This document shows, piece after piece, positions 25,518 through 55,588 of a stretch of DNA of 64,000 nt. The notes beneath the pieces were generated by a model. The model was not told the origin of the DNA and searched no databases. It worked only from the letters and a program-made list of their open reading frames with translations. Within the stretch, counting starts at the first letter, position 1. Every line of letters begins with the position of its first letter. The DNA comes from Cellulosilyticum lentocellum DSM 5427 (GTDB lineage: Bacteria; Bacillota; Clostridia; Lachnospirales; Cellulosilyticaceae): assembly GCF_000178835.2 (NCBI RefSeq), contig NC_015275.1:4121001-4185000 (forward strand). Direction: 5' to 3'. The translations under genes and the position numbers were made by a program.

Positions 25518-25559
25518 GTTATATTTTCTCCTTAAATCAGAATATATATAGTATAGCAT

Positions 25560-31818: not shown

Positions 31819-32865
31819 TTATATATACATTTTTTCAAGATAATTAGAGTATTCTCCAGATACTATATTGTTCATCCACTCATCATGCTTTAAATACCAC
31901 TGAATCGTTTCCTCCATTCCTACTTCAAAGGTATATGAAGGAGCCCAACCTAACTCAGTTGCAATCTTTGAATTGTCAATGGCATACCTTCTATCATGTC
32001 CTGGCCTATCTTGAACATACTTAATAAGTTGTTCTGATTTTCCTAGTGTTTTAATAATGAGCTTAACAATTTGGATATTGGCTTTTTCATTATTTCCACC
32101 AATATTATAAACTTCACCTGTTTCTCCCTTATGTAGAACTGTATCAATTCCTGTACAATGATCTTTAACATGAAGCCAGTCACGAATTTGCATACCGTCT
32201 CCATATACAGGTAGTTGTCTATCATTTAAACAGTTATTAATCATTAACGGGATAAGCTTTTCTGGAAATTGATAAGGACCATAGTTATTAGAACATCTTG
32301 TAATATTTACAGGCATCCCAAAAGTCTCATGATAGGCTCTTACAATCATATCTGCACTTGCCTTAGATGCAGAATAAGGGCTATTGGGGGCAAGTGGTGT
32401 TGTTTCCGTAAACATTCCTTCTTTTCCTAAAGTGCCATACACTTCATCAGTAGATACTTGAAGGTATTTTACCCCCTCTTTAAAAGATTTACAGTACTTA
32501 TCTTCAATATTAACTTTCCAATATTTCTTAGCTGTATCTAATAATACTTGTGTCCCCAGTATATTAGTTGTTAAAAATATTTCTGGATCTTCAATACTTC
32601 TATCAACATGAGATTCAGCTGCGAAGTTAACCACAGTATCTATTTCATGCTCAGTAAATAGACTATCCACTAATTCTCGATCTCTAATATCTCCCCTAAC
32701 AAAGGTATATCTAGGATTTTCTTGCACTTCTATTAAATTTTCTAAATTACCCGCATAAGTAAGTACGTCTAAATTAATAATATTATAATCATAAGTTTCT
32801 AACATATACTTTACAAAATTAGAACCAATAAAACCTGCTCCACCTGTCACTAATATATTTTTCAT
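31819..32865 (-). CDS. rfbB: dTDP-glucose 4,6-dehydratase RfbB/RmlB
   Basis: RfbB converts dTDP-glucose to dTDP-4-keto-6-deoxyglucose. It is an extended SDR enzyme of 348 residues with the NAD-binding VTGGAGFIGSNFVKY, the catalytic STDEVYG segment and the YSASKASAD (YxxxK) pair. It lies 11 nt after rfbA. The genes rfbC and rfbD, which would lead to dTDP-rhamnose, are not in the window. Instead a ketoisomerase, an aminotransferase and an acetyltransferase are present, so the product probably feeds a 3-amino-3,6-dideoxy sugar. Confidence 0.96.
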   Translation of the reverse strand: MKNILVTGGAGFIGSNFVKYMLETYDYNIINLDVLTYAGNLENLIEVQENPRYTFVRGDIRDRELVDSLFTEHEIDTVVNFAAESHVDRSIEDPEIFLTTNILGTQVLLDTAKKYWKVNIEDKYCKSFKEGVKYLQVSTDEVYGTLGKEGMFTETTPLAPNSPYSASKASADMIVRAYHETFGMPVNITRCSNNYGPYQFPEKLIPLMINNCLNDRQLPVYGDGMQIRDWLHVKDHCTGIDTVLHKGETGEVYNIGGNNEKANIQIVKLIIKTLGKSEQLIKYVQDRPGHDRRYAIDNSKIATELGWAPSYTFEVGMEETIQWYLKHDEWMNNIVSGEYSNYLEKMYI

Positions 32866-32876
32866 ATGTATCTCTC

Positions 32877-33746
32877 CTATCCATGATTCGCTACAAACTG
32901 TAGATAACGCCCATAGTCTGTTTTAAGCATTGGCTCTGCTAAGTTTAGTAGCTGCTCTTTTTGTATATATCCCTTATTATACGCAATCTCTTCAATACAA
33001 GCTACATATAAACCTTGTCTCTTTTGTACAGTGTGTACAAAGTTAGTTGCTTCCATAAGTCCCTCATGTGTCCCGGTATCTAGCCATGCCATACCTCTTC
33101 CAAAGAGCTCTACCTTTAGCTTTCCTCTTCTAAGATACTCTGCATTTACCGCTGTAATTTCTAATTCTCCTCGAGGCGAAGGCTCTATAGCCTTTGCGAT
33201 TTCTATCACATCATTATCATAGAAATATAATCCCGGAATAGCATAATTAGATTTTGGGTTAGCTGGTTTTTCTTCTAAAGATAAAACATTCCCATCTCTA
33301 TCAAACTCCACTACACCAAACGAAGTCGGGTCACTTACATAATATCCAAAAATAGTTGCTCCCTCTTCTGATGCCGATGCACTTTCTAATACGCTACCAA
33401 AGCCTCTACCATAAAAAATATTATCCCCTAATACTAAAGCTACCTTGTCTTGATTAATAAACCTTTCTCCTATAATAAAAGCTTCGGCCAACCCATTAGG
33501 TTCTTCCTGAACTGAATAGCTTATATCTAATCCTAACATTTCACCTGTACCTAATAATTCCTCATATACAGGTAAATCTCTAGGGGTTGAAATAATTAAT
33601 ATTTCTCTTATTCCTGCTAACATTAATGTGGACAAAGGATAATAAATCATAGGTTTATCATATATAGGTAGTATTTGCTTCGAAATGGATTTAGTAACGG
33701 GATACAGGCGCGTTCCACTTCCTCCTGCAAGAATAATTCCTTTCAT
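32877..33746 (-). CDS. rfbA: Glucose-1-phosphate thymidylyltransferase RfbA/RmlA
   Basis: RfbA joins glucose 1-phosphate and dTTP to dTDP-glucose, the entry point of the dTDP-sugar branch. The first residues [18 protein letters not shown] hold the nucleotidyltransferase motif, and [20 protein letters not shown] and [11 protein letters not shown] are typical of RmlA. The length is 289 residues. It sits 46 nt downstream of the GT2 gene and just upstream of rfbB. Confidence 0.96.
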
Positions 33747-33792: not shown

Positions 33793-34752
33793 TTAACTTA
33801 CTTCACTACTCGAATTACTGTCACTAATTTCTTCATCTCTTATTTCTTCCACTATGTAAACTGGCCTATTTCTAGAAGCATCTAGAATTCTCCAAATATA
33901 TTCTCCTAGTATACCTAATGTTAATAGTATCAAGCCTGAAGAGAATAATACTACTATCATGAGTGCCGTCCATCCTTGAACTTGTATATCTCCCATCATC
34001 TTTTGAGCTATTACAACAAGCATCCAAATAAATGATACAAGAGAGAAAAAGCCACCTATAATGGACATAAAGCGAATAGGCACAAATGAAAAGCCTACTA
34101 AAGAATCTACAACCAACTTAACTTTCTTAGCTAATGTCCATCTTGATACACCTACTTCTCTCTTTTGACGAACATAATATATAGTATCTCTCTTAAATCC
34201 TGACCATAAGATTTGGAGTGTAACTGCTGAATTTGTTTCGTCTAGCATTCTCAGTACTTCTATAACCTTTCTGTCAATCAAGTAGCAGTCAAAACCACCT
34301 TCTGGCATAGATGGTATCGCGAACTTTCTAATTAACCAATAATATAAATTAGCAAATAATTTTTGAGAATAACTTTCTTGTCTGTCACTTCTTACAGCTA
34401 GCACTACTTTATTGCCTTTTTTCCAGCTTTCATGCATCTCTAATAGAATTTCTGAAGGCTCTTGAAGATCTGCCGCCTTTATTGTTGCACAGTCCCCTGT
34501 ACATACTGAAAGCCCTGCAAGAATAGCAGCATGAGAACCAAAATTACGTGAAAGCTTTACAAGCTTAATTCTACTATCTCTTTTAGATAAACTATTCATA
34601 ACGTCCCACGAATTATCACCTGACCCATCATCTATCATGACAATTTCGTAGTCTTCAACAACTGAAAGAACTACTTTCTTCATATCTTCATAAAGTGCTT
34701 CTAATGTATCGCTATTATAATAGACGGGTATTATAATTGATAATTTACTCAT
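33793..34752 (-). CDS. GtrB/CsbB-type polyprenyl-phosphate glycosyltransferase
   Basis: This GT2 enzyme with two C-terminal helices resembles GtrB, ArnC and CsbB, which load a sugar onto undecaprenyl phosphate at the inner membrane face. Motifs are IPVYYNSDTLE, IMIDDGSGDNSWDVM, AADLQEP and the family-typical ILGEYIWRILDASRNRPVYIVEE at the end. It overlaps the ketoisomerase gene by 8 nt. Together with GtrA (25113) and a YfhO protein (40452) it could form a three-component glycosylation system like CsbB/GtcA/YfhO. The sugar may be the dTDP-amino sugar made by its neighbours. Confidence 0.85.
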   Translation of the reverse strand: MSKLSIIIPVYYNSDTLEALYEDMKKVVLSVVEDYEIVMIDDGSGDNSWDVMNSLSKRDSRIKLVKLSRNFGSHAAILAGLSVCTGDCATIKAADLQEPSEILLEMHESWKKGNKVVLAVRSDRQESYSQKLFANLYYWLIRKFAIPSMPEGGFDCYLIDRKVIEVLRMLDETNSAVTLQILWSGFKRDTIYYVRQKREVGVSRWTLAKKVKLVVDSLVGFSFVPIRFMSIIGGFFSLVSFIWMLVVIAQKMMGDIQVQGWTALMIVVLFSSGLILLTLGILGEYIWRILDASRNRPVYIVEEIRDEEISDSNSSSEVS

Positions 34753-35152
34753 TTTGTGCCACTTCCCTTAAAAATTCATCAAAATCCTTTATATATTCAT
34801 CACTGTCATAAGCTTCATTTGATAGTACTAGCATCACACAGTCCTCAGAAAAGTCATACATATCTTTCCACATAAGTTTAGGTATATAAAGCCCCATATT
34901 AGGTTTATCTAAACTAACTATTGTTTCTTTCTTTCCATCATGAAGACGAACTTTAGCACTTCCACACACATTTAACATTACAAATTCACTTTTCCTATTA
35001 GAATGTTGACCTCTTACAGCCTCTTTATCCATTCCATAAATATAAAATAATCTTTTAATTTCGAAAGGGATATTCTTTATTCCTTCAATTACTACAAGCT
35101 TCCCTGTCTCACCACCATTTTCTTTCCATTCAATAATTTTAAACTCTTTCAT
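34745..35152 (-). CDS. FdtA/QdtA-like dTDP-4-keto-6-deoxyglucose ketoisomerase
   Basis: This small cupin of 135 residues belongs to the WxcM-C/FdtA-like group. FdtA and QdtA move the keto group of dTDP-4-keto-6-deoxyglucose from C4 to C3. The conserved loop reads RGQHSNRKSE, in which the His of the RGxHxH motif is kept, and the beta strands SAKVRLHDG and LYIPKLMWKDM are typical. Its neighbours are RfbA/RfbB and a DegT aminotransferase. Whether the product has galacto (Fuc3N) or gluco (Qui3N) configuration cannot be decided by eye. Confidence 0.82.
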   Translation of the reverse strand: MKEFKIIEWKENGGETGKLVVIEGIKNIPFEIKRLFYIYGMDKEAVRGQHSNRKSEFVMLNVCGSAKVRLHDGKKETIVSLDKPNMGLYIPKLMWKDMYDFSEDCVMLVLSNEAYDSDEYIKDFDEFLREVAQNE

Positions 35153-35212
35153 GATTCTATACTCCCTTTTATGGATGCTTTCCTTGCAAATTATTATATG
35201 TTTCGCATTCTT

Positions 35213-35728
35213 TTAAATACTTTTCATAAAGTCTACTTTAAAGATTCCATACCACTTTATACTCTTATATTTTCCATTAATAAAAAGATGATCTTTAAAT
35301 TCACCTTCAAAACTAAAGCCTAATTTCTCATAAAACTTAATAGCTCTTATATTATCAGATAATACATTAAGATATACCTTATTAATCTTTACTTCATTAA
35401 ACGCTTTATCAAGAAGTTTTTCAGTTGCACTTCGTGCTACTCCACTCCCTATCGCGCACTTTCTCATGCTAATTGCATATTCTGCAGTATGATTTATTGA
35501 GTCAATTTCCTTCAAGCTAATTGTTCCTAGGTACTCATCTTCTTCATTTATAATTGCCAAATGCATATCCGTAGAAATGTCTTGTGCTTTCTCAATAAAA
35601 CTATATACTTTTTCAATTGTCATACTCTGAGCATCAAATCTAAAACAACTAGTAATTTCTTTATCTTGCATCCACTCCAGCATTAAAGGAGCATCTTTTT
35701 GCTTCAGCTTTCTTAGTTTAATATTCAT
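35213..35728 (-). CDS. GNAT-family N-acetyltransferase
   Basis: The protein of 171 residues is a RimJ/RimL-like GNAT. The acetyl-CoA region shows GSGVARSATEKLLDKAF and the last strand KFYEKLGFSFEGEFKDHLF. In this context it probably acylates the 3-amino group made by the adjacent aminotransferase, in place of the left-handed-helix enzymes FdtC/QdtC. The start is ATG 35728. The GAGGTG before it forms the last codons of the upstream gene (TTT-GAG-GTG-TAG), so translation is coupled. A longer TTG start at 35740 is unlikely. Confidence 0.78.
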   Translation of the reverse strand: MNIKLRKLKQKDAPLMLEWMQDKEITSCFRFDAQSMTIEKVYSFIEKAQDISTDMHLAIINEEDEYLGTISLKEIDSINHTAEYAISMRKCAIGSGVARSATEKLLDKAFNEVKINKVYLNVLSDNIRAIKFYEKLGFSFEGEFKDHLFINGKYKSIKWYGIFKVDFMKSI

Positions 35729-35729
35729 T

Positions 35730-36827
35730 CTACACCTCAAAACTATTAATAGTCTCTATTACAAAATCTTGCTCTTCTTCTGTCATTCCATTATATAGTG
35801 GAATGGAAAGTACTGTTTCTGCGTAAGCTTCTGTAATAGGCAAATTCCCCTTTTGAAGCCCTAGATAAGAATAGGCTTCTGAAAGATGTGGTGGTATTGG
35901 ATAGTGAATAATAGTTCCTATTTCTTTTTCTTCTAAATATGTAATTAGTTCCTGTCTATACTTACATTTAATAACAAACTGATGCCATACTGTACTTGCC
36001 GATTCTCTGATTATTGGAAGCTCAATAAAAGGATTATTTAACCTTTCTAAATATCTCTCACACAACTTTTGTCTCTCATTTGTTAGTTCATCTAGATGTG
36101 TAAGACGCACTCTAAGCAATCCAGCTTGTAACTCATCTAATCTAGAATTTGTTCCTACTACTTTATTATAATATCGCTTTTCGCTTCCATAGTTTCTAAA
36201 CACCTTAAACTCTTCTGCTATTTGAGGATTATTGGTTACTATTGCACCTGCATCACCAAACGCTCCAAGATTTTTAGATGGATAAAAAGAAAAACATCCT
36301 ATATCTCCAAAGGTTCCTGTCATCTTACCCTCAAAGCAAGCACCATGACTTTGAGCACAGTCTTCTACTACTTTAAGATTGTATTTATTAGCTATTTCCA
36401 TTATTCCCTTCATATTAGAAGCTTGTCCATACAGATGCACGACCAATATTGCTTTAGTCTTATCCGTTATCTTTTCTTCTATTTTAGAAGTATCTATATT
36501 GTAATACACATCTGGCTCTACAAAAATAGGTGTTGCTCCATTCATGGTGATTCCCATCACACTCGCAATGTATGTATTCCCTTGTACAATAACTTCATCA
36601 CCTTTTCCGATATTTAAAATGCGAAAAGCCATCCAAAGTGCATCTAACCCATTCGCAACACCTACGCAATATTTACTCCCTGTATAAACTGCAAATTCTT
36701 CTTCAAATTTTGAAACTTCCTTGCCAAGAACATACCACCCCGAACGTAGTACTTCTAAAGCTTTATTTTCAAAATCTAGTTGATGCATCTGAAAACCCCT
36801 ATCCATTCGATTAGGCATTATTTTCAT
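35730..36827 (-). CDS. DegT/DnrJ aminotransferase, FdtB/QdtB-like
   Basis: This PLP-dependent sugar aminotransferase probably turns dTDP-3-keto-6-deoxyhexose into the 3-amino sugar, with glutamate as amino donor. The PLP lysine lies in FYPSKNLGAFGDAGA (about residue 180); other signs are VVHLYGQASNMKGI, EDCAQSHGA and NSRLDELQAGLLRVRL. Length is normal at 365 residues. It lies between the acyltransferase-3 gene and the GNAT gene and completes the dTDP-amino-sugar set with RfbA, RfbB and the ketoisomerase. Confidence 0.88.
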   Translation of the reverse strand: MKIMPNRMDRGFQMHQLDFENKALEVLRSGWYVLGKEVSKFEEEFAVYTGSKYCVGVANGLDALWMAFRILNIGKGDEVIVQGNTYIASVMGITMNGATPIFVEPDVYYNIDTSKIEEKITDKTKAILVVHLYGQASNMKGIMEIANKYNLKVVEDCAQSHGACFEGKMTGTFGDIGCFSFYPSKNLGAFGDAGAIVTNNPQIAEEFKVFRNYGSEKRYYNKVVGTNSRLDELQAGLLRVRLTHLDELTNERQKLCERYLERLNNPFIELPIIRESASTVWHQFVIKCKYRQELITYLEEKEIGTIIHYPIPPHLSEAYSYLGLQKGNLPITEAYAETVLSIPLYNGMTEEEQDFVIETINSFEV

Positions 36828-36844: not shown

Positions 36845-38326
36845 CTATTCACTTACCATTTCTATCAATTTAAGATTACTAATATTATACTCTTGATTAG
36901 TATTGAAAATTATCCTAAGGTATACTTCATTAGGAATCGTATCTGAAAAAACTTGTGCACTATAAACGTTTTTACCCATTTCAAGATTAAATATCATGTC
37001 TTGATTTGTGGAATCATAGCCCTCACCGAATAAATCCATATAAAAAAGTGCAGGTATATTCTCCCCACTTTCTAAATTGAATTCTATCCGATATAACGTA
37101 TTATCCTTTAAATTAACCCTATTATTAAGTACACATACTTCATCATATGTATTAGGAAGTTCTACTAATTCTTCTTCATAAATAACTTCCTTATCTTTAT
37201 ATACTATAACCCTAGAATAATCATTATATATTTCTTCTTTAGGATATATAAATAATATCATTATCGACAAACAAATTAAAGTACTTATAACATTAAGCTT
37301 CGGTAATCTAACCTTATCCCTATTTTTCCCCAATTTGTCTACAATAAATTTATAACTATTATAAAATATAACAGGTAGATATATAGCACCTAATGCCACA
37401 AATAACAAATTTATCAATTTACTAGGTAAGTGAAGGTACTTTGCATATACAACATTTAAAATATTGATAAATATCATATGATACAAAAATACATATAATG
37501 ATTTACTTCCTGGTTCAAATACCTTTTTGAGTACTTTCCTTACTTCACTTTCTTCTTTTAAAAAATTATCTATTCCTTCAAAAATCACATATATAAGTGC
37601 AAAGATACATAAAGTATAAAATACAGCATACTTATTAGGAGGATTTGACCAACTAGCTACTATCCAGTCTAATTTATCCATAAGAATAATCCCTATTGTT
37701 CCTATCAGTCCCATACTCACTCTTACGATTTTTTTACTAAAATAATTTCTATTTAAATAAAACCACATGCCAAATACAAATGCAAAGAAATATGAACCTC
37801 CCAGTAAATGCGAACTTCCTCCCATAGTTCCTTCAATGTATGTATATTTATTAAACAATATTCCTGTAAAGTACGCTCCTATTAATAGAATAATCTGGAG
37901 TACTTTTTGTTGTTGTGTCTTTTGGAACATAATATATATATATGGTGCTACTATAATAAGTTGGATATAGAAAAGTATAAAATAATATGGAGGCGAGGCC
38001 GAAAATGCAATCAGATTCTTAAACAGTATATTAATATTTAACAACTTATATTGAAATAAAATACATATTATGGATGCTATTATATAGGGTATGATTACTC
38101 GCTTAATCCTAGATACAAGATATGTTTTTATTTCAAAGCCTCTCTCCATATCAATAGCTGAAGTAACTCCAGAAACTAATGTAAATAGTGTAACACTAAA
38201 TGCTGTATACAGTAATACTCTGTAATTGTCAAAATAAGTGGCTCCATAAATATGATTCATGACTACTGCAAATATGGCTATATACTTGGCTGCATCTAGC
38301 CATAAATACCTTTTTTTCTCATTCAC
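36845..38326 (-). CDS. Acyltransferase-3 family membrane protein with C-terminal module
   Basis: The first 345 residues form a ten-helix membrane domain of the acyltransferase-3 (OafA/YrhL) family, which transfers acyl groups to surface glycans. The typical start is WLDAAKYIAIFAVVMNH with the conserved His. One further helix is followed by an extracytoplasmic module (about residues 385-490), which ends ISNLKLIEM. The same module ends the next protein and lies near the C-terminus of the one after. The acyl group and the sugar are unknown. It lies 18 nt upstream of the aminotransferase gene. Confidence 0.8.
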   Translation of the reverse strand: MNEKKRYLWLDAAKYIAIFAVVMNHIYGATYFDNYRVLLYTAFSVTLFTLVSGVTSAIDMERGFEIKTYLVSRIKRVIIPYIIASIICILFQYKLLNINILFKNLIAFSASPPYYFILFYIQLIIVAPYIYIMFQKTQQQKVLQIILLIGAYFTGILFNKYTYIEGTMGGSSHLLGGSYFFAFVFGMWFYLNRNYFSKKIVRVSMGLIGTIGIILMDKLDWIVASWSNPPNKYAVFYTLCIFALIYVIFEGIDNFLKEESEVRKVLKKVFEPGSKSLYVFLYHMIFINILNVVYAKYLHLPSKLINLLFVALGAIYLPVIFYNSYKFIVDKLGKNRDKVRLPKLNVISTLICLSIMILFIYPKEEIYNDYSRVIVYKDKEVIYEEELVELPNTYDEVCVLNNRVNLKDNTLYRIEFNLESGENIPALFYMDLFGEGYDSTNQDMIFNLEMGKNVYSAQVFSDTIPNEVYLRIIFNTNQEYNISNLKLIEMVSE

Positions 38327-38376
38327 TTCTCTCTTTCCTCCTTATGAAAATTGTATTCTTATGGGTATCTGTCATA

Positions 38377-40437
38377 TTAATTCTTATTAGATTTCATCTC
38401 TATAATCTTTAAATTTTCAATTGAGTAAGATGTATTTGTAATGCTAATAATTCTAAGAAATACATTGGTAGGAACGTCTTTTCCGGAAAAAATATTATAA
38501 GAATAATGATTCTTTCCTTTCTTTGGATTAATGGTAATGTCTTGCTCAGCTCTATCATAACCTTCATTATAAAAATCCAAGTAAAACAGAGTCGGCATAT
38601 TATCTTCAATTGTCATATCAAATTCTACTTTATAATAAGTTTCTGGAGATAGATTTACTTCTATAGGAATCACATTTAGGCTTTCATCACTATTAGGAAC
38701 TTCCACTTTTTGAGTAGTATAAATCTCTTGAACCTCTGTCAGTATTTCTGGAACTAAAATATCTTTTATAGTATCTTTTTCTACATATACACTCCAAATA
38801 CTAAATACTATTGAAAATACTATACACATACTGCAACCTATTAGCGTGATTCTATTACCATTCATTAAGCTATTTATATATTTCTTTATCCCTTCTTCTT
38901 TGCTTTTCACAAAAACTTTATATATAATCATAAACGATACTATTAAGGATATATATCCCATTATCCTAACAGTATCAGGAATTTTGCTCACTAATCCTGT
39001 TTCTGCTGCTGTATGAAATAAAATGGCACCTACTTCAGCTTGTCTTAAAATATTCCCCGCATAACCAATCCCTACAAATAAAATAGTTCCTCCTATCAGC
39101 AATACCTTCCATATATTCTTTATGACTCCATTTATTACTACATTCATGCTTACCCTATAACATATATAACCGTAAATTAAAAAGTAAATTAGAGACCAAA
39201 ACCTTAGTTCTGGAACCCCTGGAATACACATTATACAAGGAATTAACATTATGATTAAGAAACCCCAATTTTCCCATCCTATCCTCTTCTTATCACAATC
39301 TCCTTTAAAGATCCATCCCGCCAGTGCATATAGCCAAACAAATACATTTATTGTAAAAAAGAAATACTTATCTGCACAAAAACTATCTATATAAGTACTA
39401 TCACTCCATATAATTGTTAAGTAACTAAATATATGATTCATATAAATTGATACAAAGTCAAACGGATACTTTAAGTAAAGTTTGATAATATCTCCTAAAC
39501 CGAGTACCCCTAAACTTCCAGTTAATCCTTCCTCTATAATAATCTGCTTACCTGTGACATCAGGGTATCCTATAGCCGGTTTATCGTAGTCTTCATATTG
39601 AGTTATAAGCGACTCATACCTGGTCATCCCCATTCCCTCATATATCTGATACATTTGCAAATTATTATCGTAATTGAATAACTGCTCAGTTAGCACTCTA
39701 GGAGTACTACTGCCTGTATATTGTTCATTAATCTTCATCTGAGGTATGGCTATTAAAGCTCCACCCAGTATAAGAGCACCTATAAAGCCTATTAAAGTAA
39801 TTTTATTCTGCTTTAAGTTTATAATTATGTAATAAATAATTACTAAAATCCCCGCATATAAATAGATAGCTCTAGTATTATATGCTGCATATAATATACA
39901 ACCAATAAAAAAACTCTTTAATAAATATGGAAATATCCCCTTACCCTTATATAAGTTTTTCAACATAAGAACTGCTAACATAAACATCGCCATTGCAGGA
40001 ATGTCAGATAACGAATATACTAAATGATTTCTCCAAAAAATAACTACTAATATTGAAAAAATAAAAGATTTTATCCATGAATATTTACTATTCATATCAT
40101 ACTCTAATAATTTAGGCACTAATACACATATAATTCCAGTAAATATCACACAATTAAATAATATAAACAATATCCACTCTGAATTAAAGAGTTTTAAGCC
40201 TATTACACGCAAACTTGCAATAATAAAAGGATATAGATACCCTCTAAATGTCTCTGGAAAGTTTAAAAAGTTAATTTTTCCATTATTAAATATGCTCATT
40301 CCCCAAGACCAATAATATTCAGAATCATAGATTTGAGTCTTAGTGCAAAAAACTACTGCAGCTATAAGCAATGTAATAAATGAAATACTAATAGCTAAAA
40401 TTAGTTGCTTATTCTCCCTTATTTTCCCTTTTATCAT
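38377..40437 (-). CDS. GT-C-like membrane glycosyltransferase with C-terminal module
   Basis: This 686-residue protein has about 13 helices. Its first external loop carries IYDSEYYWSWGMSIF, an acidic GT-C-type motif, and is followed by NFPETFRGYLYPF. It resembles ArnT/GT39 enzymes, which use polyprenyl-phosphate sugars outside the membrane. The last 110 residues (about 575-682) are the extracytoplasmic module shared with its neighbours, with the key motifs NEGYDRAEQD and IENLKIIEM. It is 14 nt from the YfhO gene. The transferred sugar is unknown. Confidence 0.75.
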   Translation of the reverse strand: MIKGKIRENKQLILAISISFITLLIAAVVFCTKTQIYDSEYYWSWGMSIFNNGKINFLNFPETFRGYLYPFIIASLRVIGLKLFNSEWILFILFNCVIFTGIICVLVPKLLEYDMNSKYSWIKSFIFSILVVIFWRNHLVYSLSDIPAMAMFMLAVLMLKNLYKGKGIFPYLLKSFFIGCILYAAYNTRAIYLYAGILVIIYYIIINLKQNKITLIGFIGALILGGALIAIPQMKINEQYTGSSTPRVLTEQLFNYDNNLQMYQIYEGMGMTRYESLITQYEDYDKPAIGYPDVTGKQIIIEEGLTGSLGVLGLGDIIKLYLKYPFDFVSIYMNHIFSYLTIIWSDSTYIDSFCADKYFFFTINVFVWLYALAGWIFKGDCDKKRIGWENWGFLIIMLIPCIMCIPGVPELRFWSLIYFLIYGYICYRVSMNVVINGVIKNIWKVLLIGGTILFVGIGYAGNILRQAEVGAILFHTAAETGLVSKIPDTVRIMGYISLIVSFMIIYKVFVKSKEEGIKKYINSLMNGNRITLIGCSMCIVFSIVFSIWSVYVEKDTIKDILVPEILTEVQEIYTTQKVEVPNSDESLNVIPIEVNLSPETYYKVEFDMTIEDNMPTLFYLDFYNEGYDRAEQDITINPKKGKNHYSYNIFSGKDVPTNVFLRIISITNTSYSIENLKIIEMKSNKN

Positions 40438-40451
40438 TATATATAACTCCT

Positions 40452-43148
40452 TTAGACTCTATGTTTTTTTGTCTTATATATAGATATAACTATAATTATT
40501 ATTAAAACTACTAAGGTAATACTACCACCTATATAAAATGAAGTAGGTACGAATTTAAACTCTACAATATGACTTCCTTCAGGTACACTAATCCCTTGTA
40601 TACTACCATTTACTATATAAATTTTAGTTTCAACTCCATCAATAAAAGCTTTCCACTCTGGATAATAATTTTGTGAAAAATTCAAGAATCCCTCTTCACT
40701 ACATTCTACTTGTGCCTTTATAGAATTAATGCCTTGATCTATAATCTTAATCTCACCTAGATCGAGTCCCTCTTTATCATCATACCCCTCAATATAGCTA
40801 TTATTAATAAAATCTAATTTATATACATCATTATATATTTTTCCTCTATCTTGTACGTTAATTACATTCTCTGTAAAATATAACAAATCCTTAGCATTAT
40901 TATTTCTATAATAAACTGTCCCATTTCCCTCATATATCTTTTCATAGATTCCTGTATATGGGATAGTTTCCATTTCTATAAACTTTAAGTTTGTAATATT
41001 TATATCAGCTATAGGGGTTCCTACAATTCGTGCTACAATATTGGCTCCTTCATCTGAATCCTCTGTAAATACATAGTTTTCATAATGATGCTTACCTTCT
41101 TTAATATATATATTAACATCTTGAGCTCCACGATCATAATTTTCTCCACATAAATCAAAGTATACACTCCCTGGAGCTTTATTAGCCTCTGCATCAAATG
41201 CTACTTTATAGAAAGTATTCTTCTTTACTTCTACTGGATTACTAAATACAAACAATTGCCCCTCTAAATTTGGAACTTGTAATATTTCTTGTTCAAAAAT
41301 AGTATTTTTCTCCATACCCATTGTATATGAAGTTCCCAATTCATCTATTACATTTTCCTGATCAGCGATTACATTCACCCCTAACATAGAAAGCGTACCA
41401 TTTTGTGCTCTTACATTGGCTCTAGCTGCAGGGAACCATGTATATAAACCGGAAAAATTCAACTGAGGAATCGCATTATTATTAAATAATCTATACATAG
41501 TTGGATTATTCAACGAAACATAAGAATTAAGAGAAGGCATTTCTAGAACTGCTCCTTTATTAAATCCTATTTCACTAGTAAAATAAGCTTGTTGTTTTTC
41601 TGAGGCATACCATATATTTCCTACGCCAATTAACTCTTTTAAAGCCTTCTTTGAATCATCCATCATATATTCTTTTGAACTGACTGTAGCATACATATGA
41701 TAATAAGGAAATGTTTGAAATAAAGTAACACTTACTAAAACACCTAAGAATATAGTAAATATCTTTTGAGTTTCATATTTACTATATAAATAGATTCCAA
41801 TACAGATTATAATACAAATAACTATCGGTCCCACAAAGATTCGTCCACCTTTATAAAACTCACTTAGATTTGAGCTAAAGATTCCATTACTAATGAATAT
41901 ATAGCATAAGCAAGCTATAATGGTAAAACATATAGTTCCTATAACTGCATAACTTAATAGCTGAGTTTTCTTAGCAGTTTCTTTAAAATACTGCAATACA
42001 AGCCCTAATATAGAAAACTCTATAAATATAAAAAGAGGTAAAATTCTACTCGGCACCCTAAATCCTCCTAAAAGAGGAATACGATACAAAATTTCACTTA
42101 AATAAGGAATATGTGCATTGGCAGCATATATGTATATACCTATCATCAATAAAAGCCCAATTTTGACAAACGAATGCTTATGTAAGATAATGATGCCACA
42201 AACAACCAATAAAATAATAGCTGTTCCTAAAAATAATTCTATATCAATTTCTGAAGAGTATAAGTGGCCGTATGGCATAGAGTAGTCTGGACCAAACACA
42301 GTAGGAAATATGGTCATAAGCAGTTTCCTAAAAGAAATGGACCATCCTTTAAAGAATTCAAAGGGTGTATCTATAGTTCCCAACGATTCATAACAACTCA
42401 TCATAAATAGCATGGGGACAAGTTGTATACAAACTAATCCAATATAAGTACTCCCCCACACTAGTCCATCTTTTATAATTCTTTTAATGCCTAATTTATC
42501 TTGAATCATAAAATAAAGAAGATATATTCCTACGATAATATCTGTATAAAATGCACATTGAATAAATCCAGCTAAAAACTGTAGCGCCATTGCTATTCCT
42601 GAAAATACCAGGAATTTAACACGTTTTGTATGGATATATCTTTGTATAAAATAAAAAATAACTGGTATCCAAACAACTGTAGAGATAATTCCCATATGAT
42701 TTTTTCTATATCCACCCATATGGATTGAAAGAATATATATAAGTCCAATAACAAAACTAATTTTTTTATCGCATTTCAATTCTCTCATAAATAAATTCAT
42801 AAAAAACCCTGCAATTGCCATATGAAGTGAATAATACACTAAAATAAAAAAGTCTAATGGTAACCAGGAGATGAGTATGGAAATAGGATAAAGTTGTCCA
42901 AAACTTTGATCCATTGCAAAAGGGATACCGTTAGATAAGTACGGATTCCAAAATGGAAACTGTCCCTGCATAATGCTTTGATTAAAGTAAATTTTAAATC
43001 CAAAAAAACCCACTCCATCTCCTGACACAAATACATTTCCTGATAATATAGTTCCTAAATATATTAAAAAAGGTACTAAAAAATAAAATCCAAAGAGAAA
43101 GATTAATTTACTCTTATCATTTTGTATCATTTTCTTTAAGTAATTCAT
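40452..43148 (-). CDS. YfhO-family membrane glycosyltransferase with inserted module
   Basis: YfhO proteins are large GT-C-like membrane enzymes that glycosylate teichoic acids or other surface polymers from a lipid-linked sugar. The 898-residue protein has the start FVSGDGVGFFGFKIYFNQSI (acidic first loop), the FPFWNPYLSNGIPF motif, about 12 helices, a large external domain and a last helix near 870-890. The shared module lies at about residues 620-726 (GENYDRGAQD and ITNLKFIEM), inside the external domain and not at its end. GtrB (33793) and GtrA (25113) are plausible partners. ATG 43148 follows GAGAGGAG. Confidence 0.85.
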   Translation of the reverse strand: MNYLKKMIQNDKSKLIFLFGFYFLVPFLIYLGTILSGNVFVSGDGVGFFGFKIYFNQSIMQGQFPFWNPYLSNGIPFAMDQSFGQLYPISILISWLPLDFFILVYYSLHMAIAGFFMNLFMRELKCDKKISFVIGLIYILSIHMGGYRKNHMGIISTVVWIPVIFYFIQRYIHTKRVKFLVFSGIAMALQFLAGFIQCAFYTDIIVGIYLLYFMIQDKLGIKRIIKDGLVWGSTYIGLVCIQLVPMLFMMSCYESLGTIDTPFEFFKGWSISFRKLLMTIFPTVFGPDYSMPYGHLYSSEIDIELFLGTAIILLVVCGIIILHKHSFVKIGLLLMIGIYIYAANAHIPYLSEILYRIPLLGGFRVPSRILPLFIFIEFSILGLVLQYFKETAKKTQLLSYAVIGTICFTIIACLCYIFISNGIFSSNLSEFYKGGRIFVGPIVICIIICIGIYLYSKYETQKIFTIFLGVLVSVTLFQTFPYYHMYATVSSKEYMMDDSKKALKELIGVGNIWYASEKQQAYFTSEIGFNKGAVLEMPSLNSYVSLNNPTMYRLFNNNAIPQLNFSGLYTWFPAARANVRAQNGTLSMLGVNVIADQENVIDELGTSYTMGMEKNTIFEQEILQVPNLEGQLFVFSNPVEVKKNTFYKVAFDAEANKAPGSVYFDLCGENYDRGAQDVNIYIKEGKHHYENYVFTEDSDEGANIVARIVGTPIADINITNLKFIEMETIPYTGIYEKIYEGNGTVYYRNNNAKDLLYFTENVINVQDRGKIYNDVYKLDFINNSYIEGYDDKEGLDLGEIKIIDQGINSIKAQVECSEEGFLNFSQNYYPEWKAFIDGVETKIYIVNGSIQGISVPEGSHIVEFKFVPTSFYIGGSITLVVLIIIIVISIYKTKKHRV

Positions 43149-43253: not shown

Positions 43254-43817
43254 TTATCTTTGCTTTTTCTTATACATGAAAAATAATATCACTATAGTAA
43301 TATCAAATACGATATTCATTATGAGAATACCCTTTTGATTCTTTATTACTTGGCCATATTTTTGTTTTGCAATGCTTACCGTATTTAAATCATACTGTAT
43401 ATAGTAAGGTTTGAAGTTTATATGAGCATTATCACCAAACCAATAAATATTCTGTTCGTCCACTAAATCTAATTTTACTACAAATTTATTTTTCCTTTTT
43501 AGTTGCTCATACTTATCAAAATCTATATTTAGTGAAATAGTCGCCACATTTCCTTGTAACGAAAAAGGAATTCTTTCATTCTCAAAAACAAGTATATTTC
43601 CTTCTTCATCGTAAATATGATAAGAAAACTTGACATTTTCATTATACAATTCAATGTTATTAAACGTGATAATGGCATCTCCTACGAAGCATTTATTAAC
43701 CAAAGCTGTTTGGTTAATAACTTCAATTGTTACTTCAGCGTCAGTGCTACAAAATGCCATAATAGGACAGATTATTAATAACATGATACTAAAAACTGCA
43801 GGCAATAATTTTCTCAT
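43254..43817 (-). CDS. Exported membrane-anchored beta-sandwich protein, Wzt-C-like
   Basis: The protein of 187 residues has a signal peptide (MRKLLPAVFSIMLLIICPIMA), an extracytoplasmic beta-sandwich of about 130 residues, and a C-terminal helix followed by KKKQR. The middle part (SYHIYDEEGNILVFENERIP, then VVKLDLVDEQNIYWFG) resembles the C-terminal carbohydrate-binding domain of Wzt, the ATPase of glycan exporters. The Wzt in this locus lacks that domain. Its place outside the membrane is different from the cytoplasmic Wzt-C. The gene overlaps the double glycosyltransferase gene by 4 nt. Binding to the exported glycan is an inference. Confidence 0.6.
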   Translation of the reverse strand: MRKLLPAVFSIMLLIICPIMAFCSTDAEVTIEVINQTALVNKCFVGDAIITFNNIELYNENVKFSYHIYDEEGNILVFENERIPFSLQGNVATISLNIDFDKYEQLKRKNKFVVKLDLVDEQNIYWFGDNAHINFKPYYIQYDLNTVSIAKQKYGQVIKNQKGILIMNIVFDITIVILFFMYKKKQR

Positions 43818-46456
43818 CCATCTACCTCACTTTCTTCAGAATGTCCAAAGAACATATCGTAATATTCCTTAGCTGCATCGTCCCACGAGTAGCCTAAAAA
43901 TACTTCTGCAAATTTCTCTTGGGATTCTAAGGCTATTTCTCTATTTTCAAGGACATGTTGAATATTATTAGCAAGAGCCTCCTCATTTAAAGCATCAAAT
44001 AATCTAAGCCCACAATTCTTCTCATTAAATCCGCAACTCTCAATGCGTTCTACTGTCATTTTTATATTAGATATGACAAGTGGCACTTTCATAAATAAAG
44101 CTTCACAAGCTTGCCATGCAAATCCACCTTCAAATAAAGTTGGCACTGGCACTACTTCGGCATATTTATAAACGCTATAAAGCTCTACTTCACTTAAATT
44201 CTTTAATAATACAATCCTACTTCTTAAATTAAACTCATCTATTAGTTGGTCAACCTCTGGCATATCTTTAGGATTCCCCGTTAATACAAGTTTAAGATCT
44301 TTAAAATCCTCTTTAAGTATATTAAATGCCTTAATTAAAGTCCCTATGTTTTTATATGGCCTTACTTGAGTAGGATAAAACATATAACGCCCATGTATAG
44401 AAAACTTTTGCCTTACTTCTTGTTCTTCCATTAATTTATTCATAATATCTTTTGGTATATTAACCGGTAGATAAATAACATTTGTATTTTGAGCTTTTAA
44501 ATTCTTAATATACTTAAGTATCTGCTCATCCCTTACAGTCTTACAGTTAGAAAACATAATCGCTCCATATCTAGCTAGATTTTCTGCTCTTGAACCTATA
44601 TCTAGATATCTAAATTTAAAGCTATTATCCTTTTCTAAAAACTCGTCGTAATGTTCTGCTACTGCCATATCATGACAAGGTACATAAATAGACTTTTCTG
44701 TGCCTATTACATTATCCAAATAAACAATAAGTGGTATAAATACTTCTGCTTTAGAAAACTCTCTAGCTACAGTGGCTAAATTATCTTTTACCTCATTTAT
44801 TTCTCCTAAGCTTTCTGCTTCATAAGCTGTAGGTGTGAATTTTTCCTTCCAATTCTTCTCATCTATAAATTGAATCCTATCCTTCAATTCCTCATCCTCT
44901 AAAATAGAAGAGAAACAAATCTTCATCTCATCTATATTAAAAGAATAGCACCAAACTTCCACATTAATATTATAATTTCTTACTAACGCTTCTACCATAT
45001 AAGACATAAAACGAGCTATTCCTTCTCTATTCAGACCAGGTATGTGATATCCAAATCCAGCCCATACACCAAGATTTTTTGCACGTTCACATGTTCTACT
45101 AGTATTAGATGGGAACATTTCACTAATACTTTTAATAATACTATTAATAGTGGATGGCACAGTCTCCTCATTATACCCAAGTTCTTGAAGTCTAAAGGCT
45201 ATATCATCTAGTACTCTATTTTCAAGCTGACTTATTTTTTGTTTGGTCCCTAGTTCTTCTAGTAATGCTAATAAACGTTGTACATACATATCTGTTGTAC
45301 ACTGCGTTTCTATAAATTTGCCTGCCTCTTTTCCAGTTCTTATGATGTATTCTTTCTCTGATATTAAATCTAATAGTGTAACCTTTATCCCTATAGCCTC
45401 ATTCTCTAGACTTATCCTAATAACAGCTTCTTCAGGCATTTCACCATAAATCCCACTATTAAGTACCAATACAGGCTTTCTGTATGACATCTGCTCAAAT
45501 AAAGATAGGGAACATACTTCAGAATTTGGATATCTTAAGTTAATGCACAAATCTGCTTGACTAAGTGCTTCATTCATAACATCATTAGATTGATATCCTA
45601 GCATGTGTAGGCAGCCTTTAAGAGTAGTTTTTGAAAGCTCTTCTAATTTACTCCCATATTCTCCACCATAAGAGCCTATAACAATATAGCAGACCTGTTT
45701 TGCTATTTGGGGATGTGTAGCTAGTACATCTGTAACCTTATCTATTCTTTTTACTTGATGTACAATTCCATTAGAAACAATAATTTTTCTTCCTTCAGCC
45801 TTGGCTTGTTTTATAACCTTACTAAGTTCAGAGTCTTTCGACTCCGTAATTTGTTGAATTTCACATGGTAGATAAGAATATCCAATAGGCCCATTATTTA
45901 GTTTTCTAATCTTATTTACAAAAAACTTTGCATGTGTAAAAACACCTATGGCATTTTCAATTATAGGCTCTATTAATTTAAAGTCTCCCATTCCATCATA
46001 ATCATAAATAGGATAGTACCCACTATTATGAGCTTCTTGAACGGTTTTACCACCTAATTCCCCATAGTACTTCTTATGCATTTCTAAGTAACTACTATAT
46101 CCTGTTTCTGGATTACCTCCAAATTCAGGAAATAAATAATATTGGCCCCAAAAACCTGACATTGTTTGATCATGTAGTATAATAATTCCCGGATAGTCTT
46201 TAGAAACATCATAAATATCCCTATGGTTACCAGCAGCATTACCTAGATTATAAATTATATAGTCATAGTCAGAAAGACTAGTTAAGTCGGTATTTTTATC
46301 AAAGACTTTAACTTCAATGTCAGTTACTATCAATTCCTCTCTATTATGTGTCCAAATATCAACTTCTACTGTCTTCCTTAACGTCTCACAAATTTCCCTA
46401 CTAACCATACCTATGGCGCTTTTATTAGAAAAAGGTGTGAACCAAGCTATTCTCAT
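43814..46456 (-). CDS. Tandem GT4-GT4 glycosyltransferase
   Basis: This 880-residue protein joins two GT-B glycosyltransferases. The first (about 1-400) begins MRIAWFTPFSNKSAIGMVSRE, and its donor lobe has GSYGGEYGSKLEEL and a weak EX7E region (NSEVCSLSLFEQMSYRKP). The second (about 455-870) begins NLGVWAGFGYHIPGLNREGI and carries YPTQVRPYKNIGTLIKAF and FEGGFAWQACEALF. Such fusions usually build a repeated disaccharide. The start overlaps the upstream stop by 4 nt, as does its own stop with the next gene. The two lobes probably use GDP-sugars made by the nearby Gmd branch, but this is inferred. Confidence 0.85.
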   Translation of the reverse strand: MRIAWFTPFSNKSAIGMVSREICETLRKTVEVDIWTHNREELIVTDIEVKVFDKNTDLTSLSDYDYIIYNLGNAAGNHRDIYDVSKDYPGIIILHDQTMSGFWGQYYLFPEFGGNPETGYSSYLEMHKKYYGELGGKTVQEAHNSGYYPIYDYDGMGDFKLIEPIIENAIGVFTHAKFFVNKIRKLNNGPIGYSYLPCEIQQITESKDSELSKVIKQAKAEGRKIIVSNGIVHQVKRIDKVTDVLATHPQIAKQVCYIVIGSYGGEYGSKLEELSKTTLKGCLHMLGYQSNDVMNEALSQADLCINLRYPNSEVCSLSLFEQMSYRKPVLVLNSGIYGEMPEEAVIRISLENEAIGIKVTLLDLISEKEYIIRTGKEAGKFIETQCTTDMYVQRLLALLEELGTKQKISQLENRVLDDIAFRLQELGYNEETVPSTINSIIKSISEMFPSNTSRTCERAKNLGVWAGFGYHIPGLNREGIARFMSYMVEALVRNYNINVEVWCYSFNIDEMKICFSSILEDEELKDRIQFIDEKNWKEKFTPTAYEAESLGEINEVKDNLATVAREFSKAEVFIPLIVYLDNVIGTEKSIYVPCHDMAVAEHYDEFLEKDNSFKFRYLDIGSRAENLARYGAIMFSNCKTVRDEQILKYIKNLKAQNTNVIYLPVNIPKDIMNKLMEEQEVRQKFSIHGRYMFYPTQVRPYKNIGTLIKAFNILKEDFKDLKLVLTGNPKDMPEVDQLIDEFNLRSRIVLLKNLSEVELYSVYKYAEVVPVPTLFEGGFAWQACEALFMKVPLVISNIKMTVERIESCGFNEKNCGLRLFDALNEEALANNIQHVLENREIALESQEKFAEVFLGYSWDDAAKEYYDMFFGHSEESEVDG

Positions 46457-47484
46457 AATAACAGCCTCCTAATGGTCTCATCCCATGTAATATTTCTTTC
46501 AATAATTTCTTCATATGCTTTATTTCCCATTAACTCCGCATTATCCTTATTATCATAAAGACAATCCATTGCTATTGCTAATTTTTCAGCTGAGGGTTCT
46601 ACAATATAACCTGTTTCTCCATCTTTAACAAAGTCACATGGTCCGCCTGAATCATTACATGTTATTACTGGTTTAGACGAATAAAATGCTTCTAGAGTTA
46701 TATACCCATAGTCTTCATTATATGGTATAAATAAACAACCTAAAGCATTTGCCATAAATTTAATCTTCTCTTCTTCACTAATCCAGCTATTAATAAATTT
46801 AACTTTAGAATCTAAATTATTTCTTTTTATAACTTCTATAATCTTCTTTAAATACTCCTCATTCTCACAATATCCAGCAATTACGAGTTTAACATTACTC
46901 TTTGTGTATTTTAAAGCCTCTATAGCTAAAAGTTGCCTTTTTAATTCTGTGATTCTACTTGGATAAAATAAATAATCACCGGTACTCTCCTTAAAAAAAC
47001 TACTATTACTAATTAGTGGAGGATTAATGACTTCTGACTCGATATTATTAAACTTCTTGATTCTTTTGCTTACTACTCCTGCAATAGTATAAATGTGTCT
47101 AGCCTCACCTATATCCTTTGTATCTATAGAAGTTACTATTTGCTTTATGGCTTGATTATGTGTATTATCCGATAATCCAAATTCTTGATCCCATAAATCA
47201 TATACTTGTCTAAATTGATGACATATCCATAAAACCTTATCTCTATGCATTACAGAAAATGTTGGATATTTAAAGCATATTACCCTATCATATCCACTAA
47301 AGTTTAACATCTTTGTTGCCAAAACAAGCTCAATAAGTTTTACTTCATAATCATCAGGAAAAGGAATTCTAAAAATGGTTACCTTATGTCCTCTTATTTG
47401 TAATTGCTTACTTAAATCCTCTACTAGTCCTTCTGCTCCCCCTTTGACAAAAGGTGTCATAGTATTAAATAATGCTATTTTCAT
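46453..47484 (-). CDS. GT4-family glycosyltransferase
   Basis: This GT-B enzyme of 343 residues starts MKIALFNTMTPFVKGGAEGLVEDL with the GT4 acceptor loop. The donor lobe has FYPSRITELKRQLLAIEAL and the EX7E motif NEDYGYITLEAFYSSKPV. It overlaps both neighbours by 4 nt (ATGA type), so the group is made as one unit. Donor unknown. Confidence 0.88.
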   Translation of the reverse strand: MKIALFNTMTPFVKGGAEGLVEDLSKQLQIRGHKVTIFRIPFPDDYEVKLIELVLATKMLNFSGYDRVICFKYPTFSVMHRDKVLWICHQFRQVYDLWDQEFGLSDNTHNQAIKQIVTSIDTKDIGEARHIYTIAGVVSKRIKKFNNIESEVINPPLISNSSFFKESTGDYLFYPSRITELKRQLLAIEALKYTKSNVKLVIAGYCENEEYLKKIIEVIKRNNLDSKVKFINSWISEEEKIKFMANALGCLFIPYNEDYGYITLEAFYSSKPVITCNDSGGPCDFVKDGETGYIVEPSAEKLAIAMDCLYDNKDNAELMGNKAYEEIIERNITWDETIRRLLL

Positions 47485-48470: not shown

Positions 48471-48476
48471 AGTCCT

Positions 48477-51007: not shown

Positions 51008-51024
51008 TTTTTACCTTCCTTACA

Positions 51025-52943: not shown

Positions 52944-52945
52944 CT

Positions 52946-54518: not shown

Positions 54519-54532
54519 CTCTATTGCTCCTC

Positions 54533-55588
<1,056 letters not shown>

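What the first reader, a model, noticed from the sequence alone, without database searches (positions are those of the whole stretch)
36845..43148. Same ~100-residue external module on three unrelated, adjacent membrane enzymes
Three consecutive genes encode an acyltransferase-3 protein, a GT-C-like glycosyltransferase and a YfhO protein. Their membrane domains belong to different families, yet each carries the same extracytoplasmic module. It begins with a Y-K/R-x-x-F strand, continues with GEGYD/NEGYD/GENYD followed by x2-4-QD, then GK-x-x-Y, and ends ISNLKLIEM, IENLKIIEM or ITNLKFIEM. In the first two it lies at the very C-terminus; in YfhO it is inside the external domain. I know of no family with this name. 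It may bind a common glycan or acceptor and hold several modification enzymes on it. The shared module suggests domain shuffling inside one locus.
Basis: partly seen in the sequence, partly recalled or inferred. Interest (0 to 1): 0.85.

Follow-up and report, generated by a model that had tools for sequence, protein, structure and literature searches.

The report
Shared sugar-binding-like module on decorating enzymes
Three neighbouring membrane enzymes of different kinds carry the same unnamed add-on domain, which looks like a sugar-binding domain that may let each of them grip the same cell-surface polysaccharide while decorating it.

Summary
A ~120-residue segment recurs on an acyltransferase-3 protein (A), a GT-C-like protein (B) and a YfhO protein (C): pairwise blastp E 4e-27 to 2e-16. 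It has no significant Pfam or PDB sequence match. AlphaFold gives a confident eight-strand beta-sandwich (pLDDT 91.5); nearest solved structures include carbohydrate-binding modules (TM to query 0.45-0.65), but also toxin jelly rolls.

I found 11 copies in 7 genomes. It is discrete and optional: 3 other acyltransferase-3 frames of the genome are too short for it, an Acidobacteriales YfhO lacks it as a ~120-residue gap, and a relative of B lacks it.

One contrast suggests acceptor binding. NSJ-143 shares the ABC-export block, has another donor cassette and another membrane enzyme, and keeps the module. G1061 shares the donor cassette and a B relative, shows no block on its contig, and lacks the module.

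Best reading: a CBM-like acceptor-recognition module on enzymes decorating one exported, probably D-rhamnose/perosamine-containing glycan. GT-C enzymes with such CBMs are known; new are the unnamed family, its presence on an acyltransferase-3, and its sharing by three enzymes of one locus. Binding is inferred.

The parts
36848..37225 (-). module copy A, residues 368-493 of the acyltransferase-3 protein, C-terminal
   Evidence: HMM envelope, domain E 1.8e-48 with A3, which contains this copy; blastp to B and C; AF2 model pLDDT 91.5
38380..38760 (-). module copy B, residues 560-686 of the GT-C-like protein, C-terminal
   Evidence: HMM envelope, domain E 1.3e-51 with A3, which contains this copy; blastp to A and C
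40947..41345 (-). module copy C, residues 602-734 of the YfhO protein, inserted in the external domain
   Evidence: HMM envelope, domain E 5.3e-49 with A3, which contains this copy; gap in a YfhO without module
36845..38326 (-). A: acyltransferase-3 membrane protein (AT3 domain 8-321, one more hydrophobic segment at 344-362, then the module)
   Evidence: Pfam PF01757 6.6e-24; hydropathy
38377..40437 (-). B: polytopic GT-C-like protein; the class is inferred
   Evidence: 10 hydrophobic segments; no Pfam or PDB match; weak profile similarity to Acidobacteriales GT-C-like proteins (E 8e-4, probability 24%)
40452..43148 (-). C: YfhO-family membrane protein
   Evidence: Pfam PF09586 2.2e-07; 47% over 893 aa to the G278 YfhO
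33793..34752 (-). family-2 glycosyltransferase of the PgfS/ArnC kind: putative undecaprenyl-phosphate sugar synthase
   Evidence: NCBIfam best PgfS 197 bits, below its cut-off of 500; Pfam PF00535
25113..25559 (-). GtrA-type protein, putative lipid-sugar flippase
   Evidence: Pfam PF04138 8.9e-27
31819..33746 (-). RmlB (31819-32865) and RmlA (32877-33746), dTDP-sugar precursor
   Evidence: NCBIfam TIGR01181 and TIGR01207 over cut-off
34745..36827 (-). FdtA/QdtA-like ketoisomerase (34745-35152), GNAT acetyltransferase (35213-35740), QdtB-like aminotransferase (35730-36827): a dTDP-3-amino-3,6-dideoxyhexose cassette
   Evidence: PDB QdtA 2e-32 and FdtA-type 7e-32, QdtB 3frk 7.7e-118, Pfam
43254..50231 (-). 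small membrane-anchored protein (43254), dual GT4 (43814), GT4-like proteins (46453, 47481), FkbM-domain protein (48477): glycan assembly block
   Evidence: Pfam (47481-48470 was not scanned, its label rests on blastp to a GT4-like NSJ-143 protein); conserved in NSJ-143 at 44-56%, small protein 43%
50258..51819 (-). two-gene ABC exporter, ATPase (50258-51007) and permease (51025-51819)
   Evidence: Pfam; NCBIfam best is the galactan exporter Wzt/Wzm, below cut-off; NSJ-143 78% and 68%
51837..56710 (-). perosamine-synthase-like DegT (51837), NeuD-type acetyltransferase (52946), Rmd-like (53589), Gmd (54533), ManC-like (55637): GDP-D-rhamnose / GDP-perosamine genes
   Evidence: PDB 3bn1 8.5e-135, 2pk3 2.9e-77, NCBIfam NeuD_NnaD, gmd and GMP_PMI over cut-off

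Best explanation
The module is an extracytoplasmic, CBM-like beta-sandwich that recognises the polysaccharide which this locus assembles in the cytoplasm and exports by its ABC transporter. Enzymes that decorate the exported chain on the outside carry it. Proposed working: RmlA, RmlB, the FdtA/QdtA-like isomerase, the QdtB-like aminotransferase and the GNAT make a dTDP-3-acylamino-3,6-dideoxyhexose; the family-2 glycosyltransferase loads it on undecaprenyl phosphate; the GtrA-type protein flips it; YfhO (C) and/or B transfer sugars to the exported chain; A adds an acyl group. In each enzyme the module holds the common acceptor near the catalytic membrane domain. Shown: homology of the three modules, fold class of the model, presence as a discrete unit, the neighbouring gene set. 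Inferred: glycan binding, which glycan, and each enzyme's reaction.
For: Fold: confident model whose Foldseek matches include a porphyran-binding CBM (8xmz, E 7.2e-4), the hyaluronan-binding module 4d0q and CBM16, CBM6 and CBM4 entries. A profile of the three copies also finds a CBM-like repeat in a GH3-like frame (G839, E 9.6e-6; labels by eye). Discrete and optional: 8-10 residues against 120-125 in an aligned YfhO without it; 3 other AT3 frames of 345, 383 and 362 aa against 498; a B relative in G1061 without it (no A2 match in G1061). Tracking: NSJ-143 keeps ABC ATPase 78%, permease 68%, Gmd 84%, DegT 75%, NeuD-type 65%, ManC 64%, Rmd 58%, dual GT 56%, GT4-like 52 and 47%, FkbM protein 44% and carries the module on a membrane protein that matches B by blastp only within the module, beside a CDP-sugar-type cassette (by eye). 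G1061 has the window's donor cassette at 70-77% (RmlA, RmlB, isomerase, aminotransferase, GT2) and a B relative, but no block on its 42.6-kb contig and no module. ABC ATPase and Gmd also lie beside the module-YfhO of Cohnella and Paenibacillus. Precedent, read as passages (PMC11127046): the GT-C enzyme ORF12 of Citrobacter youngae has a C-terminal CBM that bound the undecorated O-polysaccharide; EmbC and AftD CBMs are said to interact with acceptor.
Against: No binding data. The beta-sandwich fold also serves other ligands and structural roles, and many of the 50 Foldseek rows shown are jelly-roll domains of insecticidal or pore-forming proteins or of ephrin receptors. The acceptor contrast rests on two positive genomes and one negative, and G1061 is an incomplete draft (88% complete, 180 contigs). 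G278 has a module-YfhO, yet on its 521-kb contig only a lone 30% ABC ATPase match was found, no block (its other contigs were not searched). On the 64 of 92 kb read of the Acidobacteriales contig with three copies no such block was found. In C. youngae the CBM proved dispensable under the conditions tested.
Confidence: 0.66

Rival explanations
1. Assembly module: the copies bind one another or a common partner (for example the membrane-anchored protein at 43254-43817 or the exporter), gathering the decorating enzymes into one complex; glycan contact is incidental.
For: Three copies on three adjacent genes; the conserved small membrane-anchored protein lies next to the module genes in both the window and NSJ-143.
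Against: Only one copy was found in each of NSJ-143, G278 and Cohnella, and one strong copy in Paenibacillus, so pairing between different module proteins cannot be the general role; the fold matches include CBMs.
Confidence: 0.15
2. Ordinary structural ectodomain: GT-C and YfhO enzymes often have beta-sandwich external domains; this is one of many, with no special acceptor role, spread by fusion.
For: External CBM domains on GT-C enzymes are known and one is suspected in S. aureus YfhO (PMC11127046 and PMC8035078, passages); two Acidobacteriales proteins carry the module after a further long C-terminal stretch.
Against: It is found on AT3, B and YfhO alike and is absent from other AT3 genes of the genome and from an aligned YfhO, so the membrane folds do not need it. 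Of 11 copies, 11 keep the D and the Y-D of the motif, 10 the Q and 10 the G.
Confidence: 0.12
3. The module binds the lipid-linked donor or the donor sugar rather than the acceptor.
For: It sits mostly in putative lipid-sugar-dependent enzymes beside GtrA/GtrB-type genes.
Against: Donor cassettes differ (dTDP-3-aminosugar type in the window and Cohnella; CDP-sugar type, by eye, in NSJ-143 and G278) while the module is shared; A uses an acyl donor; G1061 has the window's donor cassette without the module.
Confidence: 0.07

Closest known systems
GT-C glycosyltransferases with an acceptor-binding CBM: ORF12/GT136 of Citrobacter youngae, EmbC, AftD (PMC11127046, passages)
   Same: Multi-spanning glycosyltransferase with an external beta-rich domain toward the C-terminus; in C. 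youngae the acceptor is exported by an ABC transporter and has Gmd/Rmd-made rhamnose; three-component donor pathway.
   Different: No PDB chain (EmbC and AftD have PDB entries, cited in that paper) matches the 8-row module profile at E up to 10, and the 3-row profile gave only sliding-clamp matches at E 0.4 and above; here the same module is also on an acyltransferase and a YfhO protein. The ORF12 sequence itself was not compared.
CsbB-GtcA-YfhO three-component glycosylation of teichoic acids (PMC8035078, passages)
   Same: GT2 + GtrA-type protein + YfhO gene set; the review says S. aureus YfhO potentially has an extracellular carbohydrate-binding domain.
   Different: Acceptor here is probably an ABC-exported deoxyhexose polysaccharide; the module is an added ~120-residue domain absent from an aligned YfhO.
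AT3-SGNH O-acyltransferases such as OafA, OafB, OatA (PMC9558356, passages)
   Same: AT3 membrane domain plus an extra hydrophobic segment plus a C-terminal domain.
   Different: The C-terminal domain is a CBM-like beta-sandwich instead of an SGNH domain; that review names SGNH and alanine racemase as the two commonest fusions.
Jelly-roll carbohydrate-binding modules of glycosidases (CBM4, CBM6, CBM16 and the hyaluronan-binding module 4d0q, CBM70 by recall)
   Same: Fold (Foldseek TM to query 0.45-0.65) and a profile match to a CBM-like repeat in a GH3-like frame.
   Different: No significant Pfam match (best CBM_4_9_1, E 0.021, one of 8 members).
Aneurinibacillus thermoaerophilus L420-91 S-layer glycan (PMC2943079, passages)
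   Same: Glycan of D-rhamnose and 3-acetamido-3,6-dideoxygalactose; the window's Rmd-like protein is closest in the PDB to 2pk3 (that 2pk3 is from this species is recalled).
   Different: No S-layer glycoprotein gene was looked for; the ketoisomerase here differs from FdtA at a key position.

Membership tests
Carbohydrate-binding module (CBM) | Jelly-roll / beta-sandwich fold | tested here: met
   AF2 pLDDT 91.5, 8 strands; Foldseek matches include CBM4, 6 and 16 entries and 4d0q
Carbohydrate-binding module (CBM) | Sequence membership of a known CBM family | tested here: not met
   No Pfam match at E 0.01 or better for the 3 members of A1 or the 8 of A3
Carbohydrate-binding module (CBM) | Shown binding of a carbohydrate | not testable with these tools
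   needs a binding assay
Three-component (GtrA/GtrB/GT-C) glycosylation system | GT2 lipid-sugar synthase, GtrA flippase and polytopic transferase in one locus | tested here: met
   by family matches only: GT2 33793-34752 (NCBIfam best below cut-off), GtrA 25113-25559, C at 40452-43148; the GtrA gene lies about 8 kb from the GT2 gene
Three-component (GtrA/GtrB/GT-C) glycosylation system | B has a GT-C fold | tested here: inconclusive
   no Pfam or PDB match; model pLDDT 50; hhalign probability 24% to Acidobacteriales proteins that are themselves only GT-C-like
AT3 acyltransferase | Acyl_transf_3 domain | tested here: met
   PF01757 85 bits, cut-off 31
AT3-SGNH acyltransferase | SGNH C-terminal domain | tested here: not met
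   C-terminal domain is the module, beta-sandwich model; no other Pfam family
YfhO family | PF09586 match over the curated cut-off | tested here: met
   30.1 bits against 28.5, C-terminal part only
FdtA (inverting 3,4-ketoisomerase) | His at the position of FdtA His95 | tested here: not met
   Lys in the window protein where the FdtA-type entry 2pak has His and QdtA 4o9e has Arg; that this is position 95 is my reading of the alignment with PMC2943079 passages

The most novel reading that the evidence does not exclude
The module is an exchangeable acceptor address tag: it marks post-export decorating enzymes of a particular exported glycan whatever their fold, chemistry or donor (sugar transfer by unrelated membrane proteins, acyl transfer by AT3), so that a new decoration can be recruited by fusing a new enzyme to the same tag. 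This would also be a CBM-type domain on an acyltransferase-3.
Probability: 0.4. Interest if true: 0.72.

Novelty: new variant of a known kind. Interest (0 to 1): 0.58.

Why it matters
How transferases outside the membrane find their own polymer among many is open. The AT3 review asks how AT3 proteins without an SGNH domain work, and the Gram-positive review speculates that some transferases need a separate acceptor-binding partner. A sequence-recognisable module that follows the acceptor and not the donor or enzyme class would help to read acceptor identity from genomes, would make specificity testable by exchanging modules, and gives a handle on a domain that no Pfam or NCBIfam model scanned here covers.

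Tried and rejected
Rejected: chance similarity (shuffles). Rejected: recent tandem duplication (no blastn match between copies at E 1e-3). Weak profile matches taken as chance: G161 (0.009 with A1; no match at 0.01 with A2), the 626-aa frame of the own genome (0.18), five class-level genomes at 0.002-0.01 (of these I read the frames of L015, L017 and L019, which look by eye like a permease, a DNA primase and an amidase; L016 and L018 were not read), and G763 (an HtpG-like frame).

Led nowhere: the first genome-contig scan and the viral-contig scan with three rows (0 of 108 and 0 of 164 stretches); plasmids by tblastn (no match); full-length model of B (pLDDT 50), so no fold search was made with it; PDB profile search with B's membrane part (no match). 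The small protein 43254-43817 against the extra N-terminal domain of the Cohnella ABC ATPase gave a score that 31 of 2000 shuffles reached: not convincing. In an alignment with the own-genome YfhO paralogue the module columns were not a clean gap, so the insertion claim for YfhO rests on the Acidobacteriales YfhO. An earlier blastp of C with that protein had one piece running into the module (C 674-888), unlike those of the Paenibacillaceae YfhO.

Literature: YfhO + carbohydrate-binding + jelly found 0 papers; AT3 + acyltransferase + carbohydrate-binding module + fusion found 3, listing only; acyltransferase family 3 + carbohydrate-binding module + O-antigen found 1, listing only. So 'no AT3-CBM fusion in print' is limited to these searches of an open-access library plus passages of PMC9558356 and PMC12423673.
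Full report
What was claimed and what is there. The three genes are at 36845-38326 (A), 38377-40437 (B) and 40452-43148 (C), - strand. Pfam calls A an acyltransferase-3 (residues 8-321) and C a YfhO protein (C-terminal stretch only), and gives nothing for B. The external segments are homologous: blastp E 3.7e-27 (A/B), 2.2e-17 (A/C), 2.4e-16 (B/C), with local scores 24.8-34.5 standard deviations above 1000 shuffles. The genome has three copies at a convincing score and one stray match at E 0.18.

Family and fold. No Pfam family matches at E 0.01 or better for the 3 members of A1 or the 8 members of A3. No PDB chain matches the 8-row profile at E up to 10; the 3-row profile gave 3 sliding-clamp matches at E 0.4-0.5. 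AlphaFold on 5 aligned copies gives pLDDT 91.5, pTM 0.83, eight strands and almost no helix. Foldseek against the PDB lists 3 matches at E 0.001 or better: a porphyran-binding CBM and two insecticidal-protein structures. The 50 rows shown include the hyaluronan-binding module 4d0q, CBM16, CBM6, CBM61 and CBM4 entries (TM to query 0.45-0.65), together with many insecticidal and pore-forming proteins and an ephrin receptor domain (family numbers partly recalled). So the fold class is CBM-like, but the fold alone does not prove sugar binding. A profile of the three copies also finds, at E 9.6e-6, a frame whose translation shows CBM-like repeats followed by a GH3-like region (that label is mine by eye).

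Distribution. Genome searches, the own genome counted each time: 1 of 24 in the family, 4 of 295 in the order, 6 of 391 in the class, 3 of 398 in the phylum. Searches centred elsewhere: with the 5-row profile 2 of 58 in the family of NSJ-143; with the 8-row profile 2 of 396 in the phylum of the Acidobacteriales MAG, that MAG included. The samples overlap. After dropping the weak matches listed under Tried and rejected and the G839 repeat there are 11 copies in 7 genomes: window 3, NSJ-143 1, G278 1, Cohnella 1, Paenibacillus 1 (plus two weak matches, E 0.002 and 0.09, in a 2868-aa frame), Acidobacteriales MAG 3 within about 18 kb, G1307 1. Carriers are YfhO (4), other GT-C-like membrane proteins (B, NSJ-143, three in the MAG), an AT3 (A), and a membrane-like protein in G1307 where the match lies near the N-terminus of the frame. 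It is therefore rare, patchy and found in more than one phylum. Profiles made only from the Paenibacillaceae copies or only from two MAG copies, neither used to build A1, match A1 by hhalign at E 1.2e-17 and 4.1e-9. In the 8 rows of A3 seven columns are invariant (Y, F, D, Y, D, Q, R). Of the 11 copies, 11 keep the D and the Y-D of the core x-D-x-x-G-x-x-Y-D-x3-Q, 10 keep the G (B has N) and 10 the Q (G1307 has R); two have small insertions.

A discrete domain. Against an Acidobacteriales YfhO of 734 aa, four module-bearing YfhO proteins show 120-125 residues where that protein has 8-10, with both flanks aligned; against the own genome's other YfhO the gap was not clean. The own genome's 3 other AT3 genes have frames of 345, 383 and 362 aa against 498 for A. 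Of 392 order genomes, 3 besides the own have relatives of B's membrane part. The best, in G1061, is 36% identical, lies just upstream of the aminotransferase gene (in the window A stands between), is split into frames of 257 and 323 aa, and so spans about 580 aa against 686: no room for the module, and the module profile finds nothing in G1061. Hydropathy puts a last hydrophobic segment at 344-362 in A and 530-548 in B just before the module, and in C the module lies between the segments at 463-481 and 872-890, in keeping with an external location. Sidedness was not computed.

Neighbourhood. On one side of the three genes lies a dTDP-sugar cassette: RmlB, RmlA, a GT2 of the PgfS/ArnC kind, an FdtA/QdtA-like isomerase, a GNAT and a QdtB-like aminotransferase, with a GtrA-type protein further off. 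On the other side lies an ABC-export glycan block: small membrane-anchored protein, dual GT4, two GT4-like proteins, FkbM-domain protein, ABC ATPase and permease, then perosamine-synthase-like DegT, NeuD-type acetyltransferase, Rmd-like, Gmd and ManC-like proteins. This predicts a glycan with D-rhamnose and/or N-acylated perosamine, carrying a 3-amino-3,6-dideoxyhexose. The S-layer glycan of A. thermoaerophilus L420-91 has four D-rhamnose and two Fuc3NAc residues (PMC2943079, passages): a useful comparison, not an identification.

The contrast that speaks to function. NSJ-143 keeps the export block listed above at 44-84% identity (small protein 43%), but next to it has a different donor cassette (CDP-sugar type; gene names by eye) and a different membrane enzyme whose only blastp similarity to B is the module (26.8% over 123 aa). 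The module is there. G1061, placed in the same genus as NSJ-143, has the window's donor cassette (70-77% for five proteins, 52% for the GNAT, 39% for GtrA) and a B relative, but at E 1e-15 no export-block gene on its 42.6-kb contig, only general sugar-enzyme similarities, and no module. Cohnella and Paenibacillus have the module on YfhO beside an ABC ATPase (38 and 40%) and Gmd (61 and 64%), with ManC (49 and 51%), and in Paenibacillus Rmd (42%). Against this: G278 has a module-YfhO in a CDP-sugar-type locus (by eye), and on its 521-kb contig, which was fetched whole, only a lone 30% ABC ATPase match, with its other contigs unsearched. On the 64 of 92 kb of the MAG contig that were read no such block was found. 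With two positives that share the closely conserved block and one negative this is a lead, not a statistic.

Mechanism. In the known pathway an undecaprenyl-phosphate sugar is made by a GT2, flipped by a GtrA-type protein and transferred outside by a GT-C enzyme such as YfhO (PMC8035078, passages). In C. youngae the GT-C enzyme that decorates an ABC-exported rhamnose/mannose chain has a C-terminal CBM that bound the undecorated polysaccharide, although the enzyme worked without it under the test conditions (PMC11127046, passages). I think the same is happening here, with one module serving two putative sugar transferases and an acyltransferase. What each transferase adds, and that the module binds the chain, is inference.

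Verdict. It belongs to a known kind (acceptor-binding modules on external transferases), with a new module family, a new partner (AT3) and an unusual case of one module shared by three enzymes of one locus.

Noticed in passing
34745-35152: The FdtA/QdtA-like isomerase has H-S-N where QdtA 4o9e has H-S-H (the FdtA-type entry 2pak has H-A-N there, perhaps a mutant), and Lys where 2pak has His and QdtA Arg; the G1061 relative shows the same H-S-N. Its product cannot be named from sequence.
   Followed up: partly
43254-43817: Small membrane-anchored protein, conserved next to the dual GT4 in NSJ-143, where the domain is duplicated. It might be a detached acceptor-binding partner of the ABC exporter, whose ATPase has only 249 aa; similarity to the extra domain of the Cohnella ATPase was not convincing.
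   Followed up: partly
L044 12556-17222 and L025 8333-10318: Three GT-C-like proteins with C-terminal modules within about 18 kb of an Acidobacteriales contig, two of them 49% identical paralogues with a further C-terminal stretch before the module; no export block found nearby.
   Followed up: partly
L051 5316-7070, L052 6882-8317, L024 12135-13390: GT-C-like genes appear split into two frames in these three loci. The L051 pieces and the first L052 piece match B; the L024 pieces match the Acidobacteriales GT-C-like proteins and not B by blastp. Could be draft errors, decay or switching.
   Followed up: no
29472-31763: A 763-aa GT-C-like membrane protein on the opposite strand with its own, different external C-terminal region; the only Pfam match up to E 0.5 is CRIM1_C at 0.07, and it was not among the module hits.
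   Followed up: no
L046 4670-6742: The most divergent module (domain E 1.5e-9) lies at residues 149-250 of a 691-aa frame, near its N-terminus, a different arrangement from the others.
   Followed up: no
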